In this document: one piece after another, positions 52,481 through 64,000 of the stretch
How positions within the stretch are numbered: position 1 is the stretch's first letter
How the letters are laid out: each line of letters starts with the position of its first letter
Source: Phytoactinopolyspora alkaliphila
Lineage (GTDB): Bacteria > Actinomycetota > Actinomycetes > Jiangellales > Jiangellaceae
NCBI RefSeq assembly: GCF_010550695.1
Contig: NZ_JAAGOB010000007.1
Span: 186,001 to 250,000 of the forward strand
DNA length: 64,000 nt
Direction of reading: 5' to 3'
The notes under the pieces: generated by a model
What the model was told of the DNA's origin: nothing
Database searches by the model: none
Seen by the model: the letters and a program-made list of their open reading frames with translations, nothing else
Made by a program: the position numbers and the translations under genes

Positions 52481-52520
52481 GGGACTCCTCTCGTGAACCG
52501 CTTGTGCGGTATGAACGCCA

Positions 52521-52590
52521 GAGTGGCAAACCTCGAGTGGCAAAGTTGTGTCAGAAGAGTGAAACTCGCTGCGCTCACGGAAGGGATACT
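52521..52590 (+). promoter_or_regulatory. SARP promoter region with GAGTGGCAAA direct repeats
   Basis: GAGTGGCAAA occurs at 52521-52530 and 52535-52544. SARP proteins bind direct repeats; this spacing (14 bp) is not the usual 11 or 22 bp. GATACT (52585-52590) is 6 nt before the GTG of the SARP gene, a leaderless-type -10. Confidence 0.45.
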
Positions 52591-52596
52591 GTCCGC

Positions 52597-55362
52597 GTGC
52601 TGACCGTCGCGTTGCTGGGGCCACTGCAGGTGTCGCAGGCAGGGGAGCCCGTCGAGTTGCCGGCCGGGCGGCTGCGCGCGCTGCTGGCCGCGCTGGCGAT
52701 GTCGGCCGGCAGCACCGTACCGACGAGCACGCTGGTAACCGCGGTCTGGGGCAGCGATCCGCGCGGCGACCCACACGCCAATGTCCGCACGAACATCAAG
52801 CGGCTGCGCCGTGTCCTAGGGCAGGCCGAGGGCCAGGTGATCGAGGCACGGCCGGGCGGCTATGCGCTGTTAGCCGATCCGCACGACGTGGACGCGCTGT
52901 GCTTCACGCACCTTCTCGATGAGGCCCGGATGGCGCCGGAACCAGAGGCCGAACGGACGCGGCTGGCGGCCGCGCTCGCTCTGTGGCGGGGCATTCCGTT
53001 CGACGGCATCCGATCGGACTGGCTGGAACAGTCGGTGGCCCCGGCCCTGCAGGAGCGCTACCTGGCCGCGCTCGAACGGCGAGTCGACCTGGACCTCGCG
53101 GGAGGGTCGCGTCCCGACCCTGCCGAGCTCGCCGAACTTGCTGAACGGCATCCACTGCGGGAATCGCTCTGGGTGCGGCTACTCCGGGTCCTGGCTTCGG
53201 CCGGCCGTCCCGCCGAGGCGCTGGAGCGATACGAGACGGTTCGTCGGCGGCTCGCCGACGAGCTCGGCACCGATCCCAGCCCTGAACTCCGCGGAGTCCA
53301 CGCCGACCTCCTCGTAGGCGACGCTCCTCCAAGCGGACGCGTCGTGCCCCGGCAGCTGCCGGCGGCCGTGGACGGATTCTCCGGGCGGGAATCCGCGCTG
53401 ACCGCGTTGGACTGCCTGCTCGGTCCCTCGGACGAGCCCGGGTCCCTCCCGCCATCGGTCGCGGTGATCACCGGCACCGCGGGCGTGGGGAAGACTACGC
53501 TTGCCGTGCATTGGGCGCACCGAGTCGCCGAGCACTTCCCGGATGGTCAGCTCTACGCTGATCTGCGCGGATACGATCCGTCGGCCGAGCCCGCGCAACC
53601 GGCGACGGTTATCCGCGAGTTCCTCGACGCGCTGCAGGTGGCGTCGCAACGAATCCCGGACGGGGCGGTCGCGCAGGCCGGGCTCTTCCGTAGTCAGATG
53701 GCCGGGCGGCGGATGCTCGTGCTGCTGGACAACGCCCGCGACGCCGACCAGGTCGTTCCGCTCCTGCCGGGGGCCCCTGGTTGCTTGGTGCTGGTCACCA
53801 GCCGGGATCACCTTGCCGGCCTGACCGTCACGTATGGTGCGCGTCCTGTTGCCCTGGACCTGCTGCAGCCGGACGAGGTGCGGCGGCTGCTGGCTCGCCG
53901 CCTGGGTCACGACCGGGTCGCCGCCGAGCCCGCCGCCGTCGAAGAGATCACGCGCCGGTGCGCCGGCCTGCCGCTCGCCCTCGCGATCGTCGCCGCCCGC
54001 GCGCGTATGCACCCTGGCCATTCACTCGCTGCCCTCGCCGGAGAACTCCGGGACGTTCTCGGTGCGCTGGGCCACACTGCCGATGTCAGGGCGGTCTTCT
54101 CGTGGTCGTACGGGGCGCTCGGCGAGCTGGAGGCGCGGGTGTTCCGGCTGGCCGGAGGGTTGCATCCCGGTCCCGGTTGCACGATCGACGCCGCTTCCAG
54201 CCTGGCGGGCATCCCGGTCTCGCGGGCCCGAGCGGCACTGGCTGTCCTGACCCGTGTCAGCCTCCTCACTGAGGACATTCCGGGCCGTTTCTCCTGCCAC
54301 GACTTGCTGCGCGCATACGCTACCGAACTCTGCGCGACTCACGACGCTGATCGTGACCTGGCGCGGCGGCGCATGGTCGACCATTACGTTCATTCGGCGT
54401 ACGGAGCCGCACGCCAGCTTCATGGGCAGCTCGGGGGCATCGCCCCCGGCGAGGCCGGGCCGGGAGTCTCGGTCAGCGGCTTTGCCGGAGCCGACGCGGC
54501 GATGTCCTGGTTCACGGCCGAGCGTTCCGCCCTTCTGGCCGTGCTCGACCTCGCCGGCCGGCTCGGCCTCGACGAGCACGTCTGCCGGTTGGCGCAGACG
54601 ATGTTCTTCGCTCTTCACCGTCAGGGCCGCTGGCACGACCGGGCCGAGACTCAGAGGACGGCCGTGGCAGCCGCCCAGCGGCTGGGCGATCCGGTGGAAG
54701 AAGTCCGTGCGCACCGCGATCTCGCCTGGGCACTCGCCGACCTGGGCCGCTTCGACGATGCCCACGGCAGCCTCGACACCGCTTTGGAACGTGGACACGA
54801 TGATCGCGGCGGTGAGGCGTGGACGCACCACTACCGCGACCTCGTGTACACCATCCAGGGCCGGGACGCCGACGCGCTGGTCGCCGCGCGCCGCGCCTAC
54901 GACATGTTCGATCAGCTCGGGGACGAGTCCGGGCAGGCCCTCGCGCTGACCAGCATCGGCTGGCACCATGGCCGCCTGGGGAACTACGGGCAGGCACGCG
55001 AACTGTGCGAGCATGCGGTGGTCCTGCACGAGAAGCTCGGCAACATTGCGTTCGAAGCCCACACGTGGTCCTGCCTCGCCGACACCCATCTGCGGCAGGG
55101 CGACGACACCGCGGCCGCCACGTGCTACCGCCGGGCACTCGAGCTGTTCCGGCGGACGGGTGACCTGTACGCGGAGGCCAGCATCCTCGCGCACGTCGGT
55201 GCTTGTCACCACCGCGCCGGGGATCACACGGCGGCCGACGAGCAATGGCGCCGCGCTCACGCCCTCCTCTCCGAGCGCGACCCGTCCACCACCGACCAGA
55301 TCCACCGCCAGCTGGAAAGCATCGACAGGGCCGCAGCCAATGCTTTCCAGCTGTGTCGCTGA
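52597..55362 (+). CDS. AfsR/SARP-type regulator with NB-ARC and TPR domains
   Basis: 921 residues. Residues about 1-80 form a winged-helix OmpR-like DNA-binding domain (LTVALLGPLQVSQ; SAGSTVPTSTLVTAVWG; IKRLRRVLGQ). Residues about 85-240 form the bacterial transcriptional activator domain (ALERRVDLDLAGG; ESLWVRLLRVLASAGRPAEALERY). The NB-ARC ATPase starts near 270: Walker A TGTAGVGKTTLAVHW, Walker B RRMLVLLDNARDADQV, and VTSRDHLAGL. The C-terminal 350 residues are TPRs. It is an AfsR-like regulator that responds to nucleotide and a partner. GTG 52597 is chosen from the domain start. There is no biosynthetic cluster next to it. Confidence 0.92.
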   Translation: MLTVALLGPLQVSQAGEPVELPAGRLRALLAALAMSAGSTVPTSTLVTAVWGSDPRGDPHANVRTNIKRLRRVLGQAEGQVIEARPGGYALLADPHDVDALCFTHLLDEARMAPEPEAERTRLAAALALWRGIPFDGIRSDWLEQSVAPALQERYLAALERRVDLDLAGGSRPDPAELAELAERHPLRESLWVRLLRVLASAGRPAEALERYETVRRRLADELGTDPSPELRGVHADLLVGDAPPSGRVVPRQLPAAVDGFSGRESALTALDCLLGPSDEPGSLPPSVAVITGTAGVGKTTLAVHWAHRVAEHFPDGQLYADLRGYDPSAEPAQPATVIREFLDALQVASQRIPDGAVAQAGLFRSQMAGRRMLVLLDNARDADQVVPLLPGAPGCLVLVTSRDHLAGLTVTYGARPVALDLLQPDEVRRLLARRLGHDRVAAEPAAVEEITRRCAGLPLALAIVAARARMHPGHSLAALAGELRDVLGALGHTADVRAVFSWSYGALGELEARVFRLAGGLHPGPGCTIDAASSLAGIPVSRARAALAVLTRVSLLTEDIPGRFSCHDLLRAYATELCATHDADRDLARRRMVDHYVHSAYGAARQLHGQLGGIAPGEAGPGVSVSGFAGADAAMSWFTAERSALLAVLDLAGRLGLDEHVCRLAQTMFFALHRQGRWHDRAETQRTAVAAAQRLGDPVEEVRAHRDLAWALADLGRFDDAHGSLDTALERGHDDRGGEAWTHHYRDLVYTIQGRDADALVAARRAYDMFDQLGDESGQALALTSIGWHHGRLGNYGQARELCEHAVVLHEKLGNIAFEAHTWSCLADTHLRQGDDTAAATCYRRALELFRRTGDLYAEASILAHVGACHHRAGDHTAADEQWRRAHALLSERDPSTTDQIHRQLESIDRAAANAFQLCR

Positions 55363-55439: not shown

Positions 55440-58325
55440 TCAGCGGCGAAGGAGGTACGACGGGCCGGCGATCCCGCCAGGTCGGTCAGCGGAGGGCTGC
55501 GGATCTGCGACGGAGATGACAATCGAGTTGGTGCCGGCCTTGAGGAACGGGCCTGCATGGAACTCCCAGACACTCGTGGTTGTGCCGTCCGCCGCTACCT
55601 GAAGCTCGTGATCGTTGACCCACGCGCGTGCCGTACCGTTCAGCCGGGTGAACAGCAGCCGTGAACCTCGGCTGATCTGGCTGCCATTGAGCCTGATGTC
55701 CGCTCGATAGGCCAAGCCACCCTGGTAGTAGCCGAGGCCTTGTTGCGGCCAGGTGCGGCTGCGGGTCTGCACCGTCATCCACAAGCTCTCGGTGGGAATC
55801 ACGCTCTCCCACAGGCCGACGTTCGCGCAGTCTCCTCTCGGGTCCACCATGGCGAACCAGGTGTCCGGCAGTTCGGTCTCGACGTGTCGGCCCGCGAGAT
55901 CCACCGCGACGGGGGGAATCGGGACATCCAGCTGGCGGTAACCGTCGCCCCGCCGGTACGGAGCGGGCGCCGTGGCCGGCTCGACGACGTCCGGACTCGC
56001 CCAGATGAAGGCAGGGCCGGTCAGCCCGCCTGTACCCAGCTCTTGCAGCCTGACGTTAGTGATCTTGAGCGTGATCTCATCATGACCGTCGAAGTGGAGG
56101 AAGCCGGTGACGTCGAACTCCCACGGCTGGAAGACCCTGCTTCCGGCCACCAGCGGCACCTCGTGCCCGTTGACCCACACCCGCGCTGATTCATCCAGCG
56201 AACCGAGCCAGAGCGTGAGCTTCCGGCTGGACCAGGTCGGATCGACGGTGACCGTTGTCCGGTACCACATCACGCCTCGGTAGTAGCGAAGCCCTTGGGC
56301 GGACCACGACCCGCCTCGCGTACGCAGCTCACGCCAGGTGTCCGTCGGCACGTCGACGGCGTAGACCTGATCGGCCTCGGCGTCGTCGTTCTGATCGAGC
56401 AGAGCCGACCAGGTGTCCGGCAGCATCGCGGCGATCTGATTCGCGCCGGAGGACCTGTCCGCGGCTTGGCTGACCGGATCGCTGAACAGGTTCAGGAAGT
56501 TTCTCCGCAGCGGATACAGGGCCACCGGCTTGTGGCTCACAGCTTCGGTGAAGGCGTCAGCAGCGTTCTCATGCTCGGCCTTCGCCTCCGCGAACTCCAG
56601 GTCGCGCCAGTGCCGCAGGGACTTCAGGAAGGCATCACCGACATCAAAAGCGAGGCGGGCGACGTGCACCCGGTCGACGATGCCGTCGTCGCCGGTGCGT
56701 GCGGCCATCGACTCAGCCGCGGACAGCTCGTCGTCGAGCGAGGTCATCAGCTGTGCCGGGAAGATCTCGGTGTGATCGAACCAGCGCCCCGCCGAGTACG
56801 GAGCCTCGGCCATGGCATCACTGATCGCCGCGTAGTACCGCGCCATCGGTGCGGCCGCCGGACCATACGCCGCCGTCATGAACTCCCGCAGAATCGGCAC
56901 CGGGTTGGCGTCGGTCTGCCACATGAGTTTGGTGGCGAGGTAGAAGGCTGGAGCGTCGTACCCCCAGCTGGCCGAGACCTCCACCCGCAGCCCTTCTGAC
57001 GAGCCGTGCTCCACCATCAAGGGGAACTCGTCCCGGGCGGGACCGATGCCGCTGAACGGCAACCCTGGATCGGCCAGGTTGAATAGGTATCCGCGGTAGC
57101 TCCACGCGTCCACCAGCTCGCTCCAGCGGTCCGCCAACCGGAGGAAGTACCGCCGTTCCCACCCTGCGGGGTCTGCCGCCGAGTGCATCCGGTCGACGTT
57201 GATCGGAGCCAGCGCCGGGACGATCTTGCGATTCGGAATCTCCCGGACGGGCGGCAGCATGTACGTGTCGTAGCAGAAGAAGGCCAGTCCGACGTCCGGG
57301 TAGTCCTGCTGCACGTCGTCGAGCACCAGATTGAAGAACTTGATGTACCGGTCCGTCACGCTCGGCAGTCCGGCCAGCGTGTCGTAGTCGCCGGCGTCCC
57401 AGTCGCTGGTGCCGAAGCCGTGGCCGTCGGCCGGGCCCATCCGCAGGAACCGCAGGTCCGGATTGTCGGCGAGGAGCGCCCTGGCGGCCGCGATGGCACG
57501 GCGGAGAACCTCTGGATGGCTCACGTCCAGCTGAGCCGTCGGCTGGCCGTTCTCAGTCATGAACAGTTCGGGCTCGGTTGTCCTGTTCGCGGGGGGCAGC
57601 AGCGGAATGCCGTGCGCGTTCCACGACGTGCCACGCAGCCGGTGACGGCGTGCCCATTCGACGCCCTCATAACGGTCGACGCCAGGAGGTAGGGTGCTCA
57701 GATAGTTGTCGACGAAGTGCATCTGGCGGCTGGCGAATGTCGGAATCTGCACCGTGTCCTGAATCGTCGCCTTGAGCGTGGTGGACTCCGGCGCTACCGT
57801 CCCGTGCGGGCCGGGCATCAGCCAACGGATTCCCAACTGCTCCAGGAGCTCGTAGGCAGCGAACAGTGTCCCGTCGTCGTCCACGCCGGCCATCTGAATG
57901 GCCGACCGCCCGACGATCAACCGGAACGAGTCGCCGCTGTCCTCGACCGGCTCGAGGTCATCGGCGATCGGATCCGGACATGCCCGCCCGATGAATATCG
58001 GGACGCCGGAGACGCCGGAGACGCCGGAGACGCCGGAGACGCCGGCGTCGTCGTTGGCGACGGGCAAGGTGGCGCCGGTGATCAGTTCGATATGTGCTTG
58101 CAGCTCGTCGGCGGCCAGCAGCTCCTTCTCGGTGGCATCCGCGGCGACGACGATGACCGATCGCGGTCTGCCCTTGTCCACCAGGGCCGGCCCCGATGGC
58201 CGGTCAGCCGGACGCAGTGCGGAGGCTGCGGCCGGCGCCGAGAGGCTCGCGGCCACGGCGGCGAAGGCCGTCGCCACGCTACCCCGAAGGACGGTTCTCC
58301 GGTCGATGGTCGGTTTCTCGTTCAT
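55440..58325 (-). CDS. Tat-exported DUF4838 protein, glycoside-hydrolase-like
   Basis: 961 residues. The N terminus has a twin-Arg signal (TIDRRTVLRGSVATAF). Residues about 55-600 match DUF4838 proteins: VIVVAADATEKELLAADELQAHIE, AAYELLEQLGIRWLMPGPHGTV, WARRHRLRG, ISDAMAEAPY. The fold resembles family 67/115-type glucuronidases. The C terminus has two related jelly-roll domains, each starting LPDTW and holding GLxYYxGxxxYRxxI, probably carbohydrate-binding. A short GVS repeat lies near residues 95-108. It is the last gene of the polysaccharide operon and would act outside the cell on glucuronic-acid-bearing glycans. AAGGAG precedes the ATG. Confidence 0.85.
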   Translation of the reverse strand: MNEKPTIDRRTVLRGSVATAFAAVAASLSAPAAASALRPADRPSGPALVDKGRPRSVIVVAADATEKELLAADELQAHIELITGATLPVANDDAGVSGVSGVSGVSGVPIFIGRACPDPIADDLEPVEDSGDSFRLIVGRSAIQMAGVDDDGTLFAAYELLEQLGIRWLMPGPHGTVAPESTTLKATIQDTVQIPTFASRQMHFVDNYLSTLPPGVDRYEGVEWARRHRLRGTSWNAHGIPLLPPANRTTEPELFMTENGQPTAQLDVSHPEVLRRAIAAARALLADNPDLRFLRMGPADGHGFGTSDWDAGDYDTLAGLPSVTDRYIKFFNLVLDDVQQDYPDVGLAFFCYDTYMLPPVREIPNRKIVPALAPINVDRMHSAADPAGWERRYFLRLADRWSELVDAWSYRGYLFNLADPGLPFSGIGPARDEFPLMVEHGSSEGLRVEVSASWGYDAPAFYLATKLMWQTDANPVPILREFMTAAYGPAAAPMARYYAAISDAMAEAPYSAGRWFDHTEIFPAQLMTSLDDELSAAESMAARTGDDGIVDRVHVARLAFDVGDAFLKSLRHWRDLEFAEAKAEHENAADAFTEAVSHKPVALYPLRRNFLNLFSDPVSQAADRSSGANQIAAMLPDTWSALLDQNDDAEADQVYAVDVPTDTWRELRTRGGSWSAQGLRYYRGVMWYRTTVTVDPTWSSRKLTLWLGSLDESARVWVNGHEVPLVAGSRVFQPWEFDVTGFLHFDGHDEITLKITNVRLQELGTGGLTGPAFIWASPDVVEPATAPAPYRRGDGYRQLDVPIPPVAVDLAGRHVETELPDTWFAMVDPRGDCANVGLWESVIPTESLWMTVQTRSRTWPQQGLGYYQGGLAYRADIRLNGSQISRGSRLLFTRLNGTARAWVNDHELQVAADGTTTSVWEFHAGPFLKAGTNSIVISVADPQPSADRPGGIAGPSYLLRR
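58002..58046. repeat. 9-bp tandem repeat (GACGCCGGA x5)
   Basis: Five head-to-tail copies of GACGCCGGA (last one ends GGC) encode GVS units in the DUF4838 protein. Length-variable tandem repeats in frame like this can expand or contract. Confidence 0.85.
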
Positions 58326-58363
58326 CTCAACTCCTTGTGGAGGGCTGCGATCGGAAACGGTGA

Positions 58364-60337
58364 CTACGTGTCAGGTGTGGCGATGTGCAGGTCACGCCCG
58401 CTGAACTCGGGCACGAGGTCGTCCAGCGGGCAATGCACGGCCATGCCCGGGATGACGTGTTGCCACATGCTCTGCGGGCCGTGCAGGCGGTTCTGGACGA
58501 CGGATTCGGGGTCCAGAGGCGGCGTCTCGAGCTCTATCCGACGTATCCGCGGTTCGATCGCGGCGGCCAGGTAGCCGAAGAAGGCGCCCGCGCCCGTACC
58601 GAAGAAATGAATCGGGGGAGTGCCGAGAACGGTGAGCTGTTCCTGCCCGAGGAACTCGACGGCCCGCAAGACGTCGAACACGCGCGCGGCGGCAAGGCTG
58701 TCGCCCAGCCAGATGAGGTCGGTCATCAGCTTGTAGACCGTGCCGTAGTTCTCCTCGAGCGGAAAGGGGTTGATCGGATGCGGTGCCAGCGCGCCGACGC
58801 CACGCACGTCGAGGGCGAGTACGCCGATCCCGCGCCCCGCCCGCTCGGCCAGCCAGGTGGTCCGGTCCGCAAGCTCCTCCGTTCCACCGTCGAAGCAGGC
58901 GATCTCCACCGCCGTCGTCGGCTCCTGAGCGGGCCGGACAAGAACACCGGCGCTCAGCACGTCGACCTCTGACCACCACACCGCTTTCCGGCTCACCAGC
59001 TCGACGGCGCCGACACGATGGCGTTGCGACGGCTGCCATCGGGCGAAGAACTCCGCAGGGGTACGCCGTTGCTCGCTCACCCGGTCGGTCAGCCATTGTG
59101 TGGGGGACGACGAGCGGGTTGACCGGAGCAGATCGAAGCGGCCCCGGTTGAGTTCGAAGACCTGGTTCACGTCCGGATGATCGAGCCGAATCTGCCCCGA
59201 GGCAGTGCATTGAAGCTCTGCTTCGGGGATGGGCTCGGGCGCGGCATGATCGACCGGAGCCGCCGCATCGTCACCCACGTGCCGGACGAAGAACTCCGTC
59301 GCTGCCCGGCCTAGCTCGGCACGTAAACCGTGTGGATGATCAACGCGAACATGACCGAGCCCGTCCGGGTTGCCGAGGATCCGGTACACCCGGCCGGCCC
59401 GTTCAACCGTGTCGACCGCACCTTCCACCGGGAAGAAGTCGTAGTTCGCGGACATCACCAGGACCGGGCGTGGTGCCATGGCGATCAGGAAGTCCTCGTG
59501 GTCGATGCCGATGTGGGCGCCGCCTGGAAGGATCTGTTCGGCGTCCTGGGCACCGCCCGACCACTGGTACGAGCTTCTGGACATGATGAAGCAGCCCAGG
59601 GCGGCGGCGGTGATGCGCGGCTCGGCGAGCATCAGCCAGGTCGCCTGAGTGGCGCCCCCACTGTTCCCGGCCACGCCGATGCGCGCCGGGTCCACCTCCG
59701 GCCGCGCGCACAGATAGTCGATCGACCGGCGAGCGTCGTCGACGAAGTACCTGGCGATGGTGTCGCCGATCCACCAGCACTGCACGCCCGCGTGGTTGTG
59801 TTCCACCACGTTGGGACGGACCTCTTCGCGGCCGGCAGAGTCCAGGTAGCTCTGACGCTCGCCGTGGCCGATCGAATCGATCGCCAGAACCACCAGCCCG
59901 TTGCGAGCCAGCCGAGCGCAGAACGATTGGTACCGCCGTGCCGCCTTGCCCGCTTCGGAGTGCCCGGACAGGAAAAGGACCGCGCCGGTGGGTTCACCGG
60001 TGTTCCGCGGCAGATAGAGGTTGGCCGTGACGAGTCGCCCGGAACCCATCTCCAGCACGAGCTTCTCGATCAGGAAGGAAGGTCGTGTCACGGTGCCGGT
60101 CAGTCGGGCAACCGGCACCGGACGGTCGGTGGGAAGGCCGCCGAGGGCTGAGTCGGCATACTCGCGAAGGATCTTCTGCCGGGCACGGACGTCCTCGGCT
60201 GTGCGCAGCGAATCGTTCGCCGCCCGCCCGGCGTCGATCTGTTCCGCCGTGCGCGCGTAGACATTCATCTGCACCTGCAGCGACGGGTCATAGAAGCCGT
60301 CGAGGCACGGGCCGAAGCCACCGATCCGAACACCCAC
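58364..60337 (-). CDS. Tandem alpha/beta-hydrolase (acetylxylan-esterase-like)
   Basis: 657 residues in two alpha/beta-hydrolase halves. The N-terminal half has VLFLSGHSEAGKAARRYQSF, AIDSIGHGERQ, and the elbow GVAGNSGGATQATWL with Ser226. SANYDFFP (Asp300) and a later VDHPHG (His334/336) can complete the triad. This half resembles acetylxylan/glucuronoyl esterases. The second half (about 430-657) repeats the fold (ALDVRGVGAL) but its elbow is HFFGTGAGAFFG, Gly582 in place of Ser, so it should be inactive. No signal peptide is evident, so it is cytoplasmic. It lies between the beta-helix and DUF4838 genes of one operon. GTG 60337 is the start. Confidence 0.82.
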   Translation of the reverse strand: MGVRIGGFGPCLDGFYDPSLQVQMNVYARTAEQIDAGRAANDSLRTAEDVRARQKILREYADSALGGLPTDRPVPVARLTGTVTRPSFLIEKLVLEMGSGRLVTANLYLPRNTGEPTGAVLFLSGHSEAGKAARRYQSFCARLARNGLVVLAIDSIGHGERQSYLDSAGREEVRPNVVEHNHAGVQCWWIGDTIARYFVDDARRSIDYLCARPEVDPARIGVAGNSGGATQATWLMLAEPRITAAALGCFIMSRSSYQWSGGAQDAEQILPGGAHIGIDHEDFLIAMAPRPVLVMSANYDFFPVEGAVDTVERAGRVYRILGNPDGLGHVRVDHPHGLRAELGRAATEFFVRHVGDDAAAPVDHAAPEPIPEAELQCTASGQIRLDHPDVNQVFELNRGRFDLLRSTRSSSPTQWLTDRVSEQRRTPAEFFARWQPSQRHRVGAVELVSRKAVWWSEVDVLSAGVLVRPAQEPTTAVEIACFDGGTEELADRTTWLAERAGRGIGVLALDVRGVGALAPHPINPFPLEENYGTVYKLMTDLIWLGDSLAAARVFDVLRAVEFLGQEQLTVLGTPPIHFFGTGAGAFFGYLAAAIEPRIRRIELETPPLDPESVVQNRLHGPQSMWQHVIPGMAVHCPLDDLVPEFSGRDLHIATPDT

Positions 60338-60377
60338 TACGCTGTCCTTTCTGCGATTCGCTCGTTCGATGTTCAGG

Positions 60378-61967
60378 TCAGGTGTTCGGAATGTCGCCGA
60401 CGGGTCCGGTGACCGATCCCCAGCGCACCGTGGGACCTGTCACATGCGTCCGACGCCCGTCGGACCCGTTGGTCACGGTCACTCCGGAGGTGAGGATGGA
60501 CCAGCGGGTCGTCGTTCCAGCCGGCATGTCTTCGGTGAACCGGCAGCCGGCGACCACCGCGCCGTAGATCCGGGATTGGTACGAATCCGCGGTGACCCCG
60601 GCGTGACCGTGCAAGAAATCGCAATCCGTGAGTCTCTTGATCGCCGAGTTCGAGGTGAAGTAGATGCCCCGGCCACCGCGAGCGATGAACGTGCAGGCGG
60701 TGTAGGCGACATTCTGTCCGGTATTCCCGGAATCGGACAGAATGACTCCGGCCGCCCCTTCGCGATACACCTGGCCATTGGTCCATGCCCGGTCTTCGAA
60801 CAGACATTCCGTATAGCGCGCCGCGAGGCTGAGATCGCTTGAGCCGTAACCGACATTCGCCGCGCCGTAGAACCGGCACCCCCCGAACTTCATCCCGGGG
60901 TAATTCGTGTAACAGCTGTATGTGGTGGTTCCCCAGAACGTGCAGTCTTCAAAGCTTGAGTGGCCGGCCTCGCCATATTGGTCATTGGCGGCGTTGAGGC
61001 CCCACCCGGCATTGTCGATGAACTCGCATCCGATGAAGAGCCCGTCGAACGTGACACTGCTCTCCGGCTCGATGTCTACGCCGGCGGCGGGTGCAGACCG
61101 GATGGCTCCGCGTCCGGTGTGATTGAACGAGCAGTTCACACAGGTCAGGCCTCGTCCACCGGTCCAGGACAGTCCCTGCCGGCCGTTGTACTCGGACACC
61201 ACGTTGGTGAGCGTGTGCGGCGTAGCCGGGCTGGCACTGGTCAGGCCGCCATAACCGATGGTGACACCGTCCAGTGCGTGATGATGTGAGTACACATTGG
61301 TGATGGCCACGTCACTGCACCTGAGGATGCGGATGCCGGTGCCCTTCATCTGCCGCCCGGTGTCGCCCCACCGGCCGCCGAGCACGAGGTTCGCGCTGTT
61401 GCCGTCAAGCTCCAAGCCGTCGATGGCGACGTTGGTGCTGCCTTCGACGCCGATCATCCAGCGCACCTCGGCCGCGTAGGCCTCGTCCCAGAAGGAGCCT
61501 GAGCCCGGCGGGTTGAACACGGCGCCGGTTTCGGGATGGAACGAGCCGTAACGCAAACCAGAGGCCAGCCGCATGGTGGCGCCGGCACCTTCGATCCGCA
61601 GGTACTGCACGGGCGTGGTCCGTGGAATGAAGAAGATGTCCTGCATCGGGTAGTACGGGGTGCCGGGGCTGCTGTCCACACCCTGGATGCCCACGATGTA
61701 GGTGGCGGGCGGGATGATCAGCGTCCCGCCACCGGCCGCGATGATCGCTGCTGCCGCGGCCTGGAACGCGGCCGTGTCGTTGGTCTGACCGTTACCCACG
61801 GCGCCGAAGTCGGCGCGGAGATCGAACGTGGGGTACTGGGCGGCCAGGTCCGACGCCGGAGACGACGCGCCGGCCGTTGCGAGCGACGCCGTCGCCAGCC
61901 CCGCGACGGGAGCCAGCGCCGCCGCTCCGAGGAAGGATCTGCGGCTCAAGCCAGAAGAAGTGCTCAT
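60378..61967 (-). CDS. Tat-exported right-handed beta-helix protein (pectate-lyase-like)
   Basis: 529 residues. SRRSFLGAAALAPVAG is a Tat signal. FDLRADFGAVGNGQTNDTAAFQAA is the start of the pectate-lyase superfamily 3 (GH28-like) fold, and residues 120-510 form repeated beta-helix coils with GLELDGNSAN, NVYSHHHALDGV and CTFWGTTTYSC-type turns. Such proteins include polygalacturonases and lyases; no full catalytic signature can be confirmed. It sits downstream of the two permeases. ATG 61967 is supported by GAGAGGAC and the Tat motif. Confidence 0.85.
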   Translation of the reverse strand: MSTSSGLSRRSFLGAAALAPVAGLATASLATAGASSPASDLAAQYPTFDLRADFGAVGNGQTNDTAAFQAAAAAIIAAGGGTLIIPPATYIVGIQGVDSSPGTPYYPMQDIFFIPRTTPVQYLRIEGAGATMRLASGLRYGSFHPETGAVFNPPGSGSFWDEAYAAEVRWMIGVEGSTNVAIDGLELDGNSANLVLGGRWGDTGRQMKGTGIRILRCSDVAITNVYSHHHALDGVTIGYGGLTSASPATPHTLTNVVSEYNGRQGLSWTGGRGLTCVNCSFNHTGRGAIRSAPAAGVDIEPESSVTFDGLFIGCEFIDNAGWGLNAANDQYGEAGHSSFEDCTFWGTTTYSCYTNYPGMKFGGCRFYGAANVGYGSSDLSLAARYTECLFEDRAWTNGQVYREGAAGVILSDSGNTGQNVAYTACTFIARGGRGIYFTSNSAIKRLTDCDFLHGHAGVTADSYQSRIYGAVVAGCRFTEDMPAGTTTRWSILTSGVTVTNGSDGRRTHVTGPTVRWGSVTGPVGDIPNT

Positions 61968-62046
61968 GGTGCGTCCTCTCTCCGGGCGCATGGCACGCCC
62001 TGTCTGTCAGTACGGACTTCTGCTCGTTGGGTCGCTGGGCGCCAGG

Positions 62047-62964
62047 TCACTTGACGGCGCCGGCCACCATGCCGGACTCGATTTGCCGCTGGAAGACGAT
62101 GTAGACCACGAGGACGGGGATCATGGACAACGTCAGGCCGGCGAACAGGCCGCTCCAGTCGCTCGCGTATTCCTGGCTCACGGCGAGCGACGCCAATCCC
62201 TGCGCTATCACGTATTTGTCTGGGTCCGTCTGAAGCACCAGAGGTAACAGAAACTGATTCCACTGGCCGATGGTGACGAATATGCCGACACTGATCATTC
62301 CTGGCCGGGCCATCGGCAGCATCACCCAGAAGAATGCCCGCCAGTGGCCGCAGCCGTCGATGAAGGCGGCGTCGGCTATGGAATCCGGGAGGGTGCGGAA
62401 GTAGGCGGTGAGAAAGAACACCGCGAATGGCAAGTAGTAGGCGGTATAGATCAAGGCCAGGCCGGGGAGCGAGTTCGCCAGTTGCAATGATCGCGCCACG
62501 AAGAACAGCGGAACGATGGCCAGGAATACCGGAAACGTCAGGCCCGCGACGAACAGGAAATAGATCACTCGGTTGCCCGGGAACGGATACCTGGCGATGA
62601 CGTAGGCCACCAGAGACCCCAGCCCCAGAGTGAGGATCACCCCCAGGGAGACGACGACCGCCGTATTGAGGAAGTACTGCCCGATGTTCGCCGTGGTCCA
62701 AGCCCGAACGAAGCTGTCCAGGCTGAACGATCCGGGTAAGGACCATGCGCTGGTCAGGATCTCGTCGTCGGACTTGAAGGAGTTCAGCACCGTCCAGAGC
62801 AACGGCAGGATGACGAGGACGGCCCAGGTCAGCAGGAAGGCGTGGGAGAAGACGTTGAGGGTACGCCCTCCAATGTCCGCCTGGTCCCGCCCGCTGCGTC
62901 TGGGCGGTTCGGTGCGCGCGGGAGGCTTCGGGTCGAGTGCTCGAGGCTGGCTGTGGACGCTCAT
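62047..62964 (-). CDS. Sugar ABC transporter permease (MalG-like) of the polysaccharide operon
   Basis: 305 residues. Six membrane helices follow a basic N terminus. The EAA loop ADAAFIDGCGHWRAFFWVMLPMARP lies near 208-232. GQWNQFLLPLVLQTDPDK follows. It is the second permease of the transporter whose binding protein lies at the window edge. It starts 9 nt after the first permease stops. Confidence 0.92.
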   Translation of the reverse strand: MSVHSQPRALDPKPPARTEPPRRSGRDQADIGGRTLNVFSHAFLLTWAVLVILPLLWTVLNSFKSDDEILTSAWSLPGSFSLDSFVRAWTTANIGQYFLNTAVVVSLGVILTLGLGSLVAYVIARYPFPGNRVIYFLFVAGLTFPVFLAIVPLFFVARSLQLANSLPGLALIYTAYYLPFAVFFLTAYFRTLPDSIADAAFIDGCGHWRAFFWVMLPMARPGMISVGIFVTIGQWNQFLLPLVLQTDPDKYVIAQGLASLAVSQEYASDWSGLFAGLTLSMIPVLVVYIVFQRQIESGMVAGAVK

Positions 62965-62973
62965 CGACGGCTC

Positions 62974-63891
62974 CTAATACACCACGCGGTCACGCCGCAT
63001 GAATCGCAACGTGATCACCGCCAGGACGATGGTCACGACGAACAGGGCGACTCCCAGGGCGGTGGCATATCCGAACCTGCCGTGCTCGAAAGCCGTCAGA
63101 TAGATGTAGTTGCCCAGCACCTGGGTGGAGTTGTTGGGACCACCCGACCCACCGGCCGCCGACATGACGTTGACGATGGCGAACATGTCCAGCGCGTTGA
63201 TGCCGGCATAGACGAGCGCGACCTGAACGGTGTCCCAGATCAAAGGCACCGTGATCCGCCAGAAGATGCGCCAGCGGCTCGCGCCGTCCAGCATCGCAGC
63301 CTCATACATGTCAGGCGGAATCGATCCGATCGCGGCGGTGAACACCAGCACGTAGAACCCGACCGAAACCCAGACAATCACGGCCAGGATCGCCCAGTAC
63401 GCCGTCCTGGTGCTCCCCAGCCAGTTCACCGGATCGATACCGATAAGCCCGAGGAAGCCATTGAGCAGCCCGTTGCCGGTGGGATCGTAGACGAACGACC
63501 AGAGGACACCGATCACGGCAATGGACAGCAGATGCGGAAAGAAGTAGACGATGCGATAGAAGGACGCGCCGCGCACACCTTGTACCGCGGCCTTCTTCGC
63601 CCGGCCGGCCACGTTCAGCATCGTGGCGAAGAACAGGCCGAGCCCGATCGAGAACACCGGCAGCACCACTGCGGCGAGAAGGTTGTGCCTCAGCGAGATC
63701 CAGAAGACCGGGTCCTTCAGGAGCCGCTCGTAGTTGGCCAGCCCGATGAGCCGTCGTTCCGATGTGTAGCCGCTCCAGTCGGTCAACGAGACATAGAACG
63801 ACTGCAGATACGGCCAGAGAACAAGCACGGCGTAGAGCACGATCGGGCCAGCCAGCGCACCGACGATGAAACGGTATCTTCCCTGCCGCAT
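62974..63891 (-). CDS. Sugar ABC transporter permease (MalF-like) of the polysaccharide operon
   Basis: 305 residues, six helices. YEAAMLDGASRWRIFWRITVPLIWD near 201-225 is the EAA loop. FVSLTDWSG-type segment FYVSLTDWSGYT lies in the first periplasmic loop. ATG 63891 is chosen because it follows the binding-protein stop by 7 nt. A longer frame would run into that gene. Confidence 0.9.
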   Translation of the reverse strand: MRQGRYRFIVGALAGPIVLYAVLVLWPYLQSFYVSLTDWSGYTSERRLIGLANYERLLKDPVFWISLRHNLLAAVVLPVFSIGLGLFFATMLNVAGRAKKAAVQGVRGASFYRIVYFFPHLLSIAVIGVLWSFVYDPTGNGLLNGFLGLIGIDPVNWLGSTRTAYWAILAVIVWVSVGFYVLVFTAAIGSIPPDMYEAAMLDGASRWRIFWRITVPLIWDTVQVALVYAGINALDMFAIVNVMSAAGGSGGPNNSTQVLGNYIYLTAFEHGRFGYATALGVALFVVTIVLAVITLRFMRRDRVVY

Positions 63892-63898
63892 GGATGCG

Positions 63899-64000
63899 TC
63901 AGTCTCGCTGGAACTTGGTGACGGAGTCGTCGTCCTTGACGGCGTCGGCTGCGCTCTGGCATTGCTGTGCCCACTCGTCGGGGTTGATCTCACCGGTCAT
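63899..64000 (-). CDS. Sugar-binding protein, C-terminal end (runs off the right edge)
   Basis: 33 codons and a stop: MTGEINPDEWAQQCQ...AVKDDDSVTKFQRD. This is the usual tail of a family 1 sugar-binding protein (GEI.P.EW...C). It is the first visible gene of a minus-strand operon with the two permeases. Confidence 0.75.
   Translation of the reverse strand: MTGEINPDEWAQQCQSAADAVKDDDSVTKFQRD

What the first reader, a model, noticed from the sequence alone, without database searches (positions are those of the whole stretch)
55440..64000. Polysaccharide operon linking ABC uptake to a beta-helix protein, an esterase-like protein and DUF4838
Six minus-strand genes with short gaps (7-79 nt). Two products carry Tat signals. 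The set suggests decoration-removing enzymes for acidic plant polysaccharides such as glucuronoxylan or pectin, with DUF4838 as a candidate glucuronidase.
Basis: partly seen in the sequence, partly recalled or inferred. Interest (0 to 1): 0.55.

Follow-up and report, generated by a model that had tools for sequence, protein, structure and literature searches.

The report
Sugar-import operon with glucuronidase-like enzyme
A soil-type actinomycete carries a self-regulated six-gene kit for importing and trimming a decorated, probably acidic, sugar chain, including an exported enzyme shaped like known glucuronidases but belonging to a family whose substrate is not settled; it is a good candidate for bench testing rather than a surprise.

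Summary
In detail: six minus-strand genes (substrate-binding protein, two permeases, beta-helix, alpha/beta hydrolase, DUF4838), gaps 7, 9, 55, 40 and 38 nt; the binding-protein gene runs past the window end. A divergent LacI regulator and a 13-bp-period direct-repeat operator lie just outside; with up to two mismatches the operator occurs only at this operon, in 7 of 7 operon-bearing genomes and 0 of 3 others. The genus is Phytoactinopolyspora. The five-gene core was found in 7 of 23 genomes searched, DUF4838 in only 2 of these 7. In 3 of the 7 the core is followed by Gfo/Idh/MocA, SDR, KdgD-type and enolase-superfamily genes, pointing to a sugar-acid end product. The DUF4838 model matches GH115 alpha-glucuronidases best (Z 17.8-19.5, about 500 residues), with one invariant Asp near GH115's essential Asp. 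The hydrolase's best solved relative is a uronate methylesterase. Against a pure uronate reading, the binding protein passes the NgcE (GlcNAc/diacetylchitobiose) cut-off, and one paper labels a DUF4838 protein GH163, an endo-beta-N-acetylglucosaminidase. Verdict: real, coherent, ordinary in kind, substrate unproven; the glucuronidase guess is plausible on fold, not shown.

The parts
63899..64000 (-). 3' end of substrate-binding lipoprotein gene, NgcE family, Tat-like signal; the rest lies outside the window (to 65335). Beyond it: operator-like direct repeat at 65459-65482 and divergent LacI-type regulator from 65510 or 65594 to 66646 (+)
   Evidence: (TIGR03851 536.1 bits, cut-off 399.65)
62974..63891 (-). 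ABC permease 1 (UgpA/GlcT-like), ATG start 7 nt after the binding-protein gene
62047..62964 (-). ABC permease 2 (UgpE/GlcU-like)
60378..61991 (-). exported (Tat-like signal) right-handed beta-helix protein, candidate lyase/hydrolase/epimerase; conserved H236-H238, D241, R271, Q272, D306, E308, E310
58364..60337 (-). probably cytoplasmic (no signal seen) alpha/beta hydrolase, candidate uronate/acetyl esterase; S226, D300, H336 invariant in 13 of 13; degenerate second alpha/beta domain without Ser
55440..58325 (-). exported (Tat-like signal) DUF4838 glycosidase-like protein: GH115/GH67-like residues about 44-627, GH2-type sugar-binding jelly roll about 620-779, second jelly roll about 812-960

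Best explanation
This is a locally regulated glycan-scavenging operon. SHOWN by sequence: a LacI-type regulator next to a direct-repeat operator found only here, an ABC sugar importer without its own ATPase gene, two proteins with Tat-like signals (beta-helix, DUF4838) and a serine alpha/beta hydrolase that keeps its triad. INFERRED: the exported enzymes cut or strip a decorated, uronic-acid-bearing oligo- or polysaccharide outside the cell (DUF4838 as an exo- or debranching glycosidase of GH115-like build, using D300 and possibly E449); the binding protein and permeases import the released oligosaccharide, energised by a shared ATPase; the cytoplasmic hydrolase removes an ester (methyl or acetyl) from it; the sugar acid then enters an oxidative route (dehydrogenase, enolase-type dehydratase, KdgD) that is encoded in the operon in some relatives and, by homologues, elsewhere in this genome. 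The imported sugar induces the operon by releasing LacI.
For: Core order conserved in 7 of 23 genomes searched; operator found at this operon only, 7 of 7 operon-bearing and 0 of 3 other genomes, up to 2 mismatches, reversed-pattern control 0. In 3 of the 7 the core is followed by Gfo/Idh/MocA, SDR, a KdgD-type protein (NF002958 403.8 bits vs cut-off 278) and an enolase-superfamily protein. DUF4838 model (pLDDT 79.8): first 11 Foldseek PDB hits all GH115, Z 17.8-19.5 over about 500 residues; profile hits to GH67 E 8.7e-8 and GH115 E 9e-5; profile-profile match to GH115 over 453 columns, prob 93.9, E 1.6e-7, negative control prob 0.1. D300 and E449 are the only invariant acids in 18 DUF4838 sequences. 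Hydrolase: best PDB hit 6goc E 6.9e-8, which is BT1017, active on methyl-GalA and methyl-GlcA.
Against: The binding protein scores as NgcE, whose two studied members bind GlcNAc and its dimer, and its best PDB hit 9h0n comes from a study of milk-oligosaccharide uptake built on lacto-N-biose. A DUF4838 protein is labelled GH163 endo-beta-N-acetylglucosaminidase in print. The superfamily also holds hexosaminidases (GH84, GH20 among the Foldseek hits), so fold does not give specificity. The window's own operon lacks the KdgD-type/enolase genes; its genome's best KdgD match is elsewhere at 52% identity. The SDR has no solved uronate dehydrogenase among its 5 hits at 1e-10; the enolase-type protein is below the cut-off of every NCBIfam model listed, and the KdgD-type protein is below the stricter KdgD equivalog cut-off (291.4 vs 373.95).
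Confidence: 0.5

Rival explanations
1. HexNAc-glycan system: DUF4838 is a GH163-like endo-beta-N-acetylglucosaminidase that releases GlcNAc-containing oligosaccharides, which the NgcE-type importer takes up; the beta-helix and hydrolase strip other decorations. The substrate would be an N-glycan-like, hyaluronan-like or bacterial envelope glycan.
For: TIGR03851 over cut-off; NgcE proteins bind GlcNAc/(GlcNAc)2 (passages); a DUF4838 protein labelled GH163 (passages); profile hits to GH84 O-GlcNAcase N-domain E 2.8e-5.
Against: Three paralogues in this genome pass the same NgcE cut-off, two of them in unlike gene contexts, so the model does not fix the ligand; the seven operon binding proteins are 63-95% alike and only 40-45% like the two paralogues; no HexNAc catabolic gene was recognised among the operon genes scanned; KdgD-type genes in 3 of 7 point to sugar acids.
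Confidence: 0.22
2. Mixed acidic glycan with both uronate and HexNAc (glycosaminoglycan-like or bacterial exopolysaccharide): both sets of clues are right at once.
For: NgcE-type binding protein together with KdgD-type/enolase partners and a glucuronidase-like fold; a Burkholderia DUF4838 gene sits in an exopolysaccharide locus.
Against: No known glycosaminoglycan lyase family recognised; the beta-helix protein matches only general models over cut-off.
Confidence: 0.15
3. Oxidative deglycosylation route: partner Gfo/Idh/MocA and FAD oxidoreductases oxidise a sugar or glycoside and the hydrolase acts on a lactone or ester intermediate; uronates are not involved.
For: A Gfo/Idh/MocA gene lies in the same stretch as the hydrolase in 10 of 14 hydrolase loci inspected; its model hits include inositol 2-dehydrogenase and glycoside 3-dehydrogenase (below cut-off); FAD_oxidored and xylose-isomerase-like genes are neighbours in relatives.
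Against: The window's own operon has neither oxidoreductase; the KdgD subfamily acts on 5-dehydro-4-deoxyglucarate, a uronate-derived acid (family name).
Confidence: 0.1

Closest known systems
GH115 alpha-glucuronidases (BoAgu115A, wtsAgu115A, BtGH115A)
   Same: Same order of N-terminal domain, TIM barrel and helical domain (Z 17.8-19.5); an invariant Asp after strand beta4 one column from GH115 Asp332/Asp303 (residue roles).
   Different: 10-13% identity; no PF15979 match; in the profile alignment Arg328, Glu375, His422 and Asp424 are not kept; C-terminal jelly rolls of GH2 type.
GH67 alpha-glucuronidases
   Same: N-terminal domain and overall fold; best sequence-profile hit in the PDB.
   Different: No match to a GH67 catalytic model; only 8 of 18 sequences match Glyco_hydro_67N, not the window protein.
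GH163 (endo-beta-N-acetylglucosaminidase)
   Same: A DUF4838 protein carries this label in PMC9870897.
   Different: No GH163 reference sequence was at hand; the relation of this subfamily, with GH2-type jelly rolls, to it is untested.
NgcEFG importer of Streptomyces (GlcNAc / N,N'-diacetylchitobiose)
   Same: Binding protein over the TIGR03851 cut-off; one binding protein and two permeases, no ATPase gene.
   Different: Linked to glycan-modifying enzymes and a LacI regulator; ligand unknown.
BT1017 uronate methylesterase of Bacteroides
   Same: alpha/beta hydrolase with a conserved Ser, Asp and His; best solved sequence relative (E 6.9e-8).
   Different: No DUF3826 domain found; a second degenerate alpha/beta domain; no export signal seen.

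Membership tests
GH115 | Match to the family model PF15979 | tested here: not met
   Pfam scan of the window protein lists DUF4838 and GH2-type domains, no PF15979; none among the 10 families matched by the 18 sequences of A6.
GH115 | Build of N-domain, TIM barrel, helical bundle | tested here: met
   VIA-align Z 17.8-19.5 with 7 GH115 entries over about 500 residues; AF2 pLDDT 79.8.
GH115 | Essential active-site residues (BoAgu115A D206, R328, D332, E375, H422, D424) | tested here: inconclusive
   D300 falls one column from D332; the others are not kept across the family in the profile alignment, which is coarse (residue list).
GH67 | Match to GH67 models | tested here: not met
   Window protein matches no GH67 model; 8 of 18 sequences match the N-domain only.
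GH163 | Similarity to a characterised GH163 enzyme | not testable with these tools
   No chain named GH163 in the PDB search; founding paper not held.
DUF4838 (PF16126) | Score over the curated cut-off | tested here: met
   88.4 bits vs 26.6.
NgcE (TIGR03851) | Score over the curated cut-off | tested here: met
   536.1 bits vs 399.65; but two other paralogues in the genome also pass.
NgcE (TIGR03851) | Binds GlcNAc or diacetylchitobiose | not testable with these tools
   Needs a binding assay.
LacI-family regulator | LacI DNA-binding and ligand domains | tested here: met
   PF00356 and PF13377 over cut-off; a conserved repeat beside the gene is found only at this operon, binding not tested.
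CE15 glucuronoyl esterase | Match to a CE15 model over its cut-off | tested here: not met
   GCE_fung 16.7 bits vs cut-off 27, covering only part of the model; nucleophile motif GNSGG.
BT1017-type methylesterase | Catalytic Ser-Asp-His set | tested here: met
   S226, D300, H336 invariant in 13 of 13 homologues aligned; the roles of D300 and H336 are assigned from position, not from a structure.

The most novel reading that the evidence does not exclude
DUF4838 proteins with GH2-type jelly rolls are a separate, so far undescribed branch of the GH67/GH115 superfamily, alpha-glucuronidases or other uronidases with an active site of their own (D300, E449), carried as an exchangeable module together with a beta-helix enzyme and an FAD or Gfo/Idh/MocA oxidoreductase across Actinomycetota, Bacillota and other phyla.
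Probability: 0.3. Interest if true: 0.6.

Novelty: new variant of a known kind. Interest (0 to 1): 0.4.

Why it matters
DUF4838 is a domain whose substrate is unsettled: Pfam still calls it unknown, one paper calls a member GH163, and its fold points to glucuronidases. This operon gives a compact test: one regulator, one operator found nowhere else in the genome, one importer, three enzymes. Measuring what the binding protein holds and what DUF4838 cuts would help settle the family and could add a uronidase useful for plant or microbial polysaccharides.

Tried and rejected
Tried without result: close-relative scan of genome contigs with the DUF4838 protein alone (none); viral contigs for the beta-helix protein (none); AF2 of the beta-helix protein (pLDDT 43.3), not used for any fold search; DUF4838 searches on plasmids gave only weak matches, one region read. 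The 396-genome phylum search with the single protein found only the window's genome and the domain search found DUF4838 over cut-off in 3 of 396; both are samples. Families not shown in the VIA list are not thereby excluded, as the GH2-type domain fills most rows.

Considered and rejected: GH115 or GH67 membership (models not matched); CE15 (partial sub-threshold match, other nucleophile motif); the NgcE annotation as proof of a chitin substrate (three paralogues pass the cut-off); the convergent SARP-like gene at 52504-55362 as part of the operon (opposite strand). Literature: 'DUF4838' was found in 1 paper and 'PF16126' in 0; any absence of a described function rests on these two searches of an open-access library only. 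Papers: passages seen of PMC6167110, PMC9063842, PMC3879575, PMC7939467, PMC9870897, PMC12345172 and PMC9522356; PMC11180146, PMC8252862 and PMC7419316 were searched for terms with no hit; the rest are search listings only. What I know of the founding GH163 work is recalled, not read.

Full report
What is there. The window is part of a 5.5-Mb genome. A contig of a same-genus genome has the same length and match position as a Phytoactinopolyspora limicola record (616,469 bases), so the genus is Phytoactinopolyspora, family Jiangellaceae. On the minus strand lie, in order of transcription, a substrate-binding protein (mostly outside the window), two permeases, a beta-helix protein, an alpha/beta hydrolase and a DUF4838 protein, with gaps of 7, 9, 55, 40 and 38 nt. 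Beyond the window end there is a divergent LacI-type gene. The operon ends against a convergent SARP-like gene.

Regulation. Between the LacI gene and the first operon gene lies TGATTAAGCGC repeated with a 13-bp period, twice in Phytoactinopolyspora and three times in the four other intergenic regions read complete. A search with up to two mismatches in 10 genomes found it only at this operon, in all 7 genomes that hold the operon and in none of the 3 others; the reversed pattern gave none. This fits a one-target local regulator. That LacI binds it is inferred.

Conservation. The beta-helix gene was found in 7 of 23 genomes searched. In all 7 the five genes binding protein, permease, permease, beta-helix, hydrolase stand in the same order: at 90-98% identity in one Phytoactinopolyspora and at about 54-66% in five genomes of another genus of the family, presumably Jiangella. 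DUF4838 follows in 2 of the 7, the window's genome and its close relative, where the gene is frameshifted. In the five other genomes two further genes stand between LacI and the binding protein (gene maps); in the one examined by family they are an FAD oxidoreductase and a second beta-helix protein. In 3 of the 5 the core is followed by Gfo/Idh/MocA, SDR, DHDPS-type and enolase-superfamily genes (families scanned in one of the three, the others by homology or gene size and order). The DHDPS-type protein scores 403.8 bits for the 5-dehydro-4-deoxyglucarate dehydratase subfamily (cut-off 278) but below the stricter KdgD equivalog cut-off (291.4 vs 373.95). The enolase-type protein is nearest to talarate/galactarate dehydratase among models, below cut-off, and to 2ovl, an anhydrogalactonate cycloisomerase and talarate/galactarate dehydratase among structures. 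This is the main evidence that the imported sugar ends as a sugar acid. In the window's genome the best homologues of the Gfo/Idh/MocA and KdgD-type proteins lie elsewhere, at 53% and 52% identity.

DUF4838. Relatives were found in Paenibacillus, Planctomycetota, Gemmatimonadaceae, Lentisphaerae and others (12 loci), most with the GH2-type extension. Beside them are beta-helix homologues in two Paenibacillus loci, FAD oxidoreductases in two, and in P. limicola homologues of the second beta-helix, the Gfo/Idh/MocA and a GDSL protein. The AlphaFold2 model (17 sequences, mean pLDDT 79.8) gives GH115 alpha-glucuronidases as the first 11 Foldseek hits, followed by GH138, GH84, GH20 and GH67 among others. 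VIA-align gives Z 17.8-19.5 for 7 GH115 entries over about 500 residues, and Z about 16-18 for the jelly roll at 620-779 against GH2 beta-glucuronidases. For comparison, GH115 and GH67 themselves were reported at DALI Z 16.1 with no shared active-site residues (passage of PMC3879575). By sequence profile the domain hits GH67 (E 8.7e-8), GH84 (2.8e-5) and GH115 (9e-5), mostly through the N-terminal domain. A profile-profile comparison with three actinobacterial GH115 proteins aligns 453 columns (probability 93.9, E 1.6e-7); the beta-helix alignment as a control gives 0.1. D300 and E449 are the only acidic residues invariant in all 18 DUF4838 sequences, with R200, Y352, W401, W469 and R552 also invariant. 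In the profile alignment D300 is one column from GH115 Asp332/Asp303, the latter proposed as general acid. E449 falls at the end of the last barrel strand with no acidic GH115 counterpart there. So the family shares the superfamily but fails the models of GH115 and GH67.

The other enzymes. The hydrolase keeps S226, D300 and H336 in 13 of 13 homologues; its second alpha/beta domain lacks a serine. Its best solved relative is 6goc (E 6.9e-8), BT1017, which removes methyl esters from methyl-GalA and methyl-GlcA (passages). A Gfo/Idh/MocA gene lies in the same stretch in 10 of 14 hydrolase loci inspected; one further hit, at a contig edge, was not inspected. The beta-helix protein keeps a set of His, Arg, Asp and Glu residues in 9 of 9 sequences, and its motif region is matched by a phage tail-fibre structure (E 7.5e-10); the reaction is unknown.

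The importer. The binding protein exceeds the NgcE cut-off, but so do two other proteins of the same genome, 40-45% identical to it, whereas the seven operon proteins are 63-95% identical to each other. The two studied NgcE proteins are only 35% identical and both bind GlcNAc compounds (passages), so divergence alone does not exclude GlcNAc. No ATPase gene is in the operon; a shared ATPase is assumed from what is generally known of such importers.

Weighing. The sugar-acid genes, the glucuronidase-like fold and the uronate-esterase-like hydrolase point to an acidic glycan; the NgcE-type binding protein and the GH163 label (PMC9870897; by dbCAN) point to HexNAc. Both may hold if the glycan carries both.

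Noticed in passing
58002-58045: Perfect 9-bp tandem repeat, 4.9 copies, inside the DUF4838 gene, coding a GVSGVSG loop absent from the aligned relatives and of low model confidence.
   Followed up: partly
L018 7508-10361: The DUF4838 gene of the close relative is frameshifted near residue 421; pseudogene or sequencing error.
   Followed up: no
L005 (G000 contig C6): Second DUF4838 gene of the same genome with DUF2264, GDSL esterase, two enolase-superfamily genes, a DHDPS-type gene, Gfo/Idh/MocA homologues and an SBP_bac_5 binding protein: again sugar-acid-type neighbours.
   Followed up: partly
L021 (G000 contig C6): Another NgcE-type importer beside a large NAGPA-type phosphodiester glycosidase, a UTRA-GntR regulator and a GDSL esterase.
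   Followed up: no
60378-61991: The beta-helix family's NxRQG...AGxDIEP motif is shared with phage tail-fibre protein gp22 (7qoj).
   Followed up: partly
L116: A Burkholderia plasmid carries a DUF4838 gene inside an exopolysaccharide biosynthesis locus, so the domain is not tied to catabolic operons.
   Followed up: no
52504-55362: Convergent SARP/AfsR-like regulator with BTAD, NB-ARC and TPR domains.
   Followed up: no
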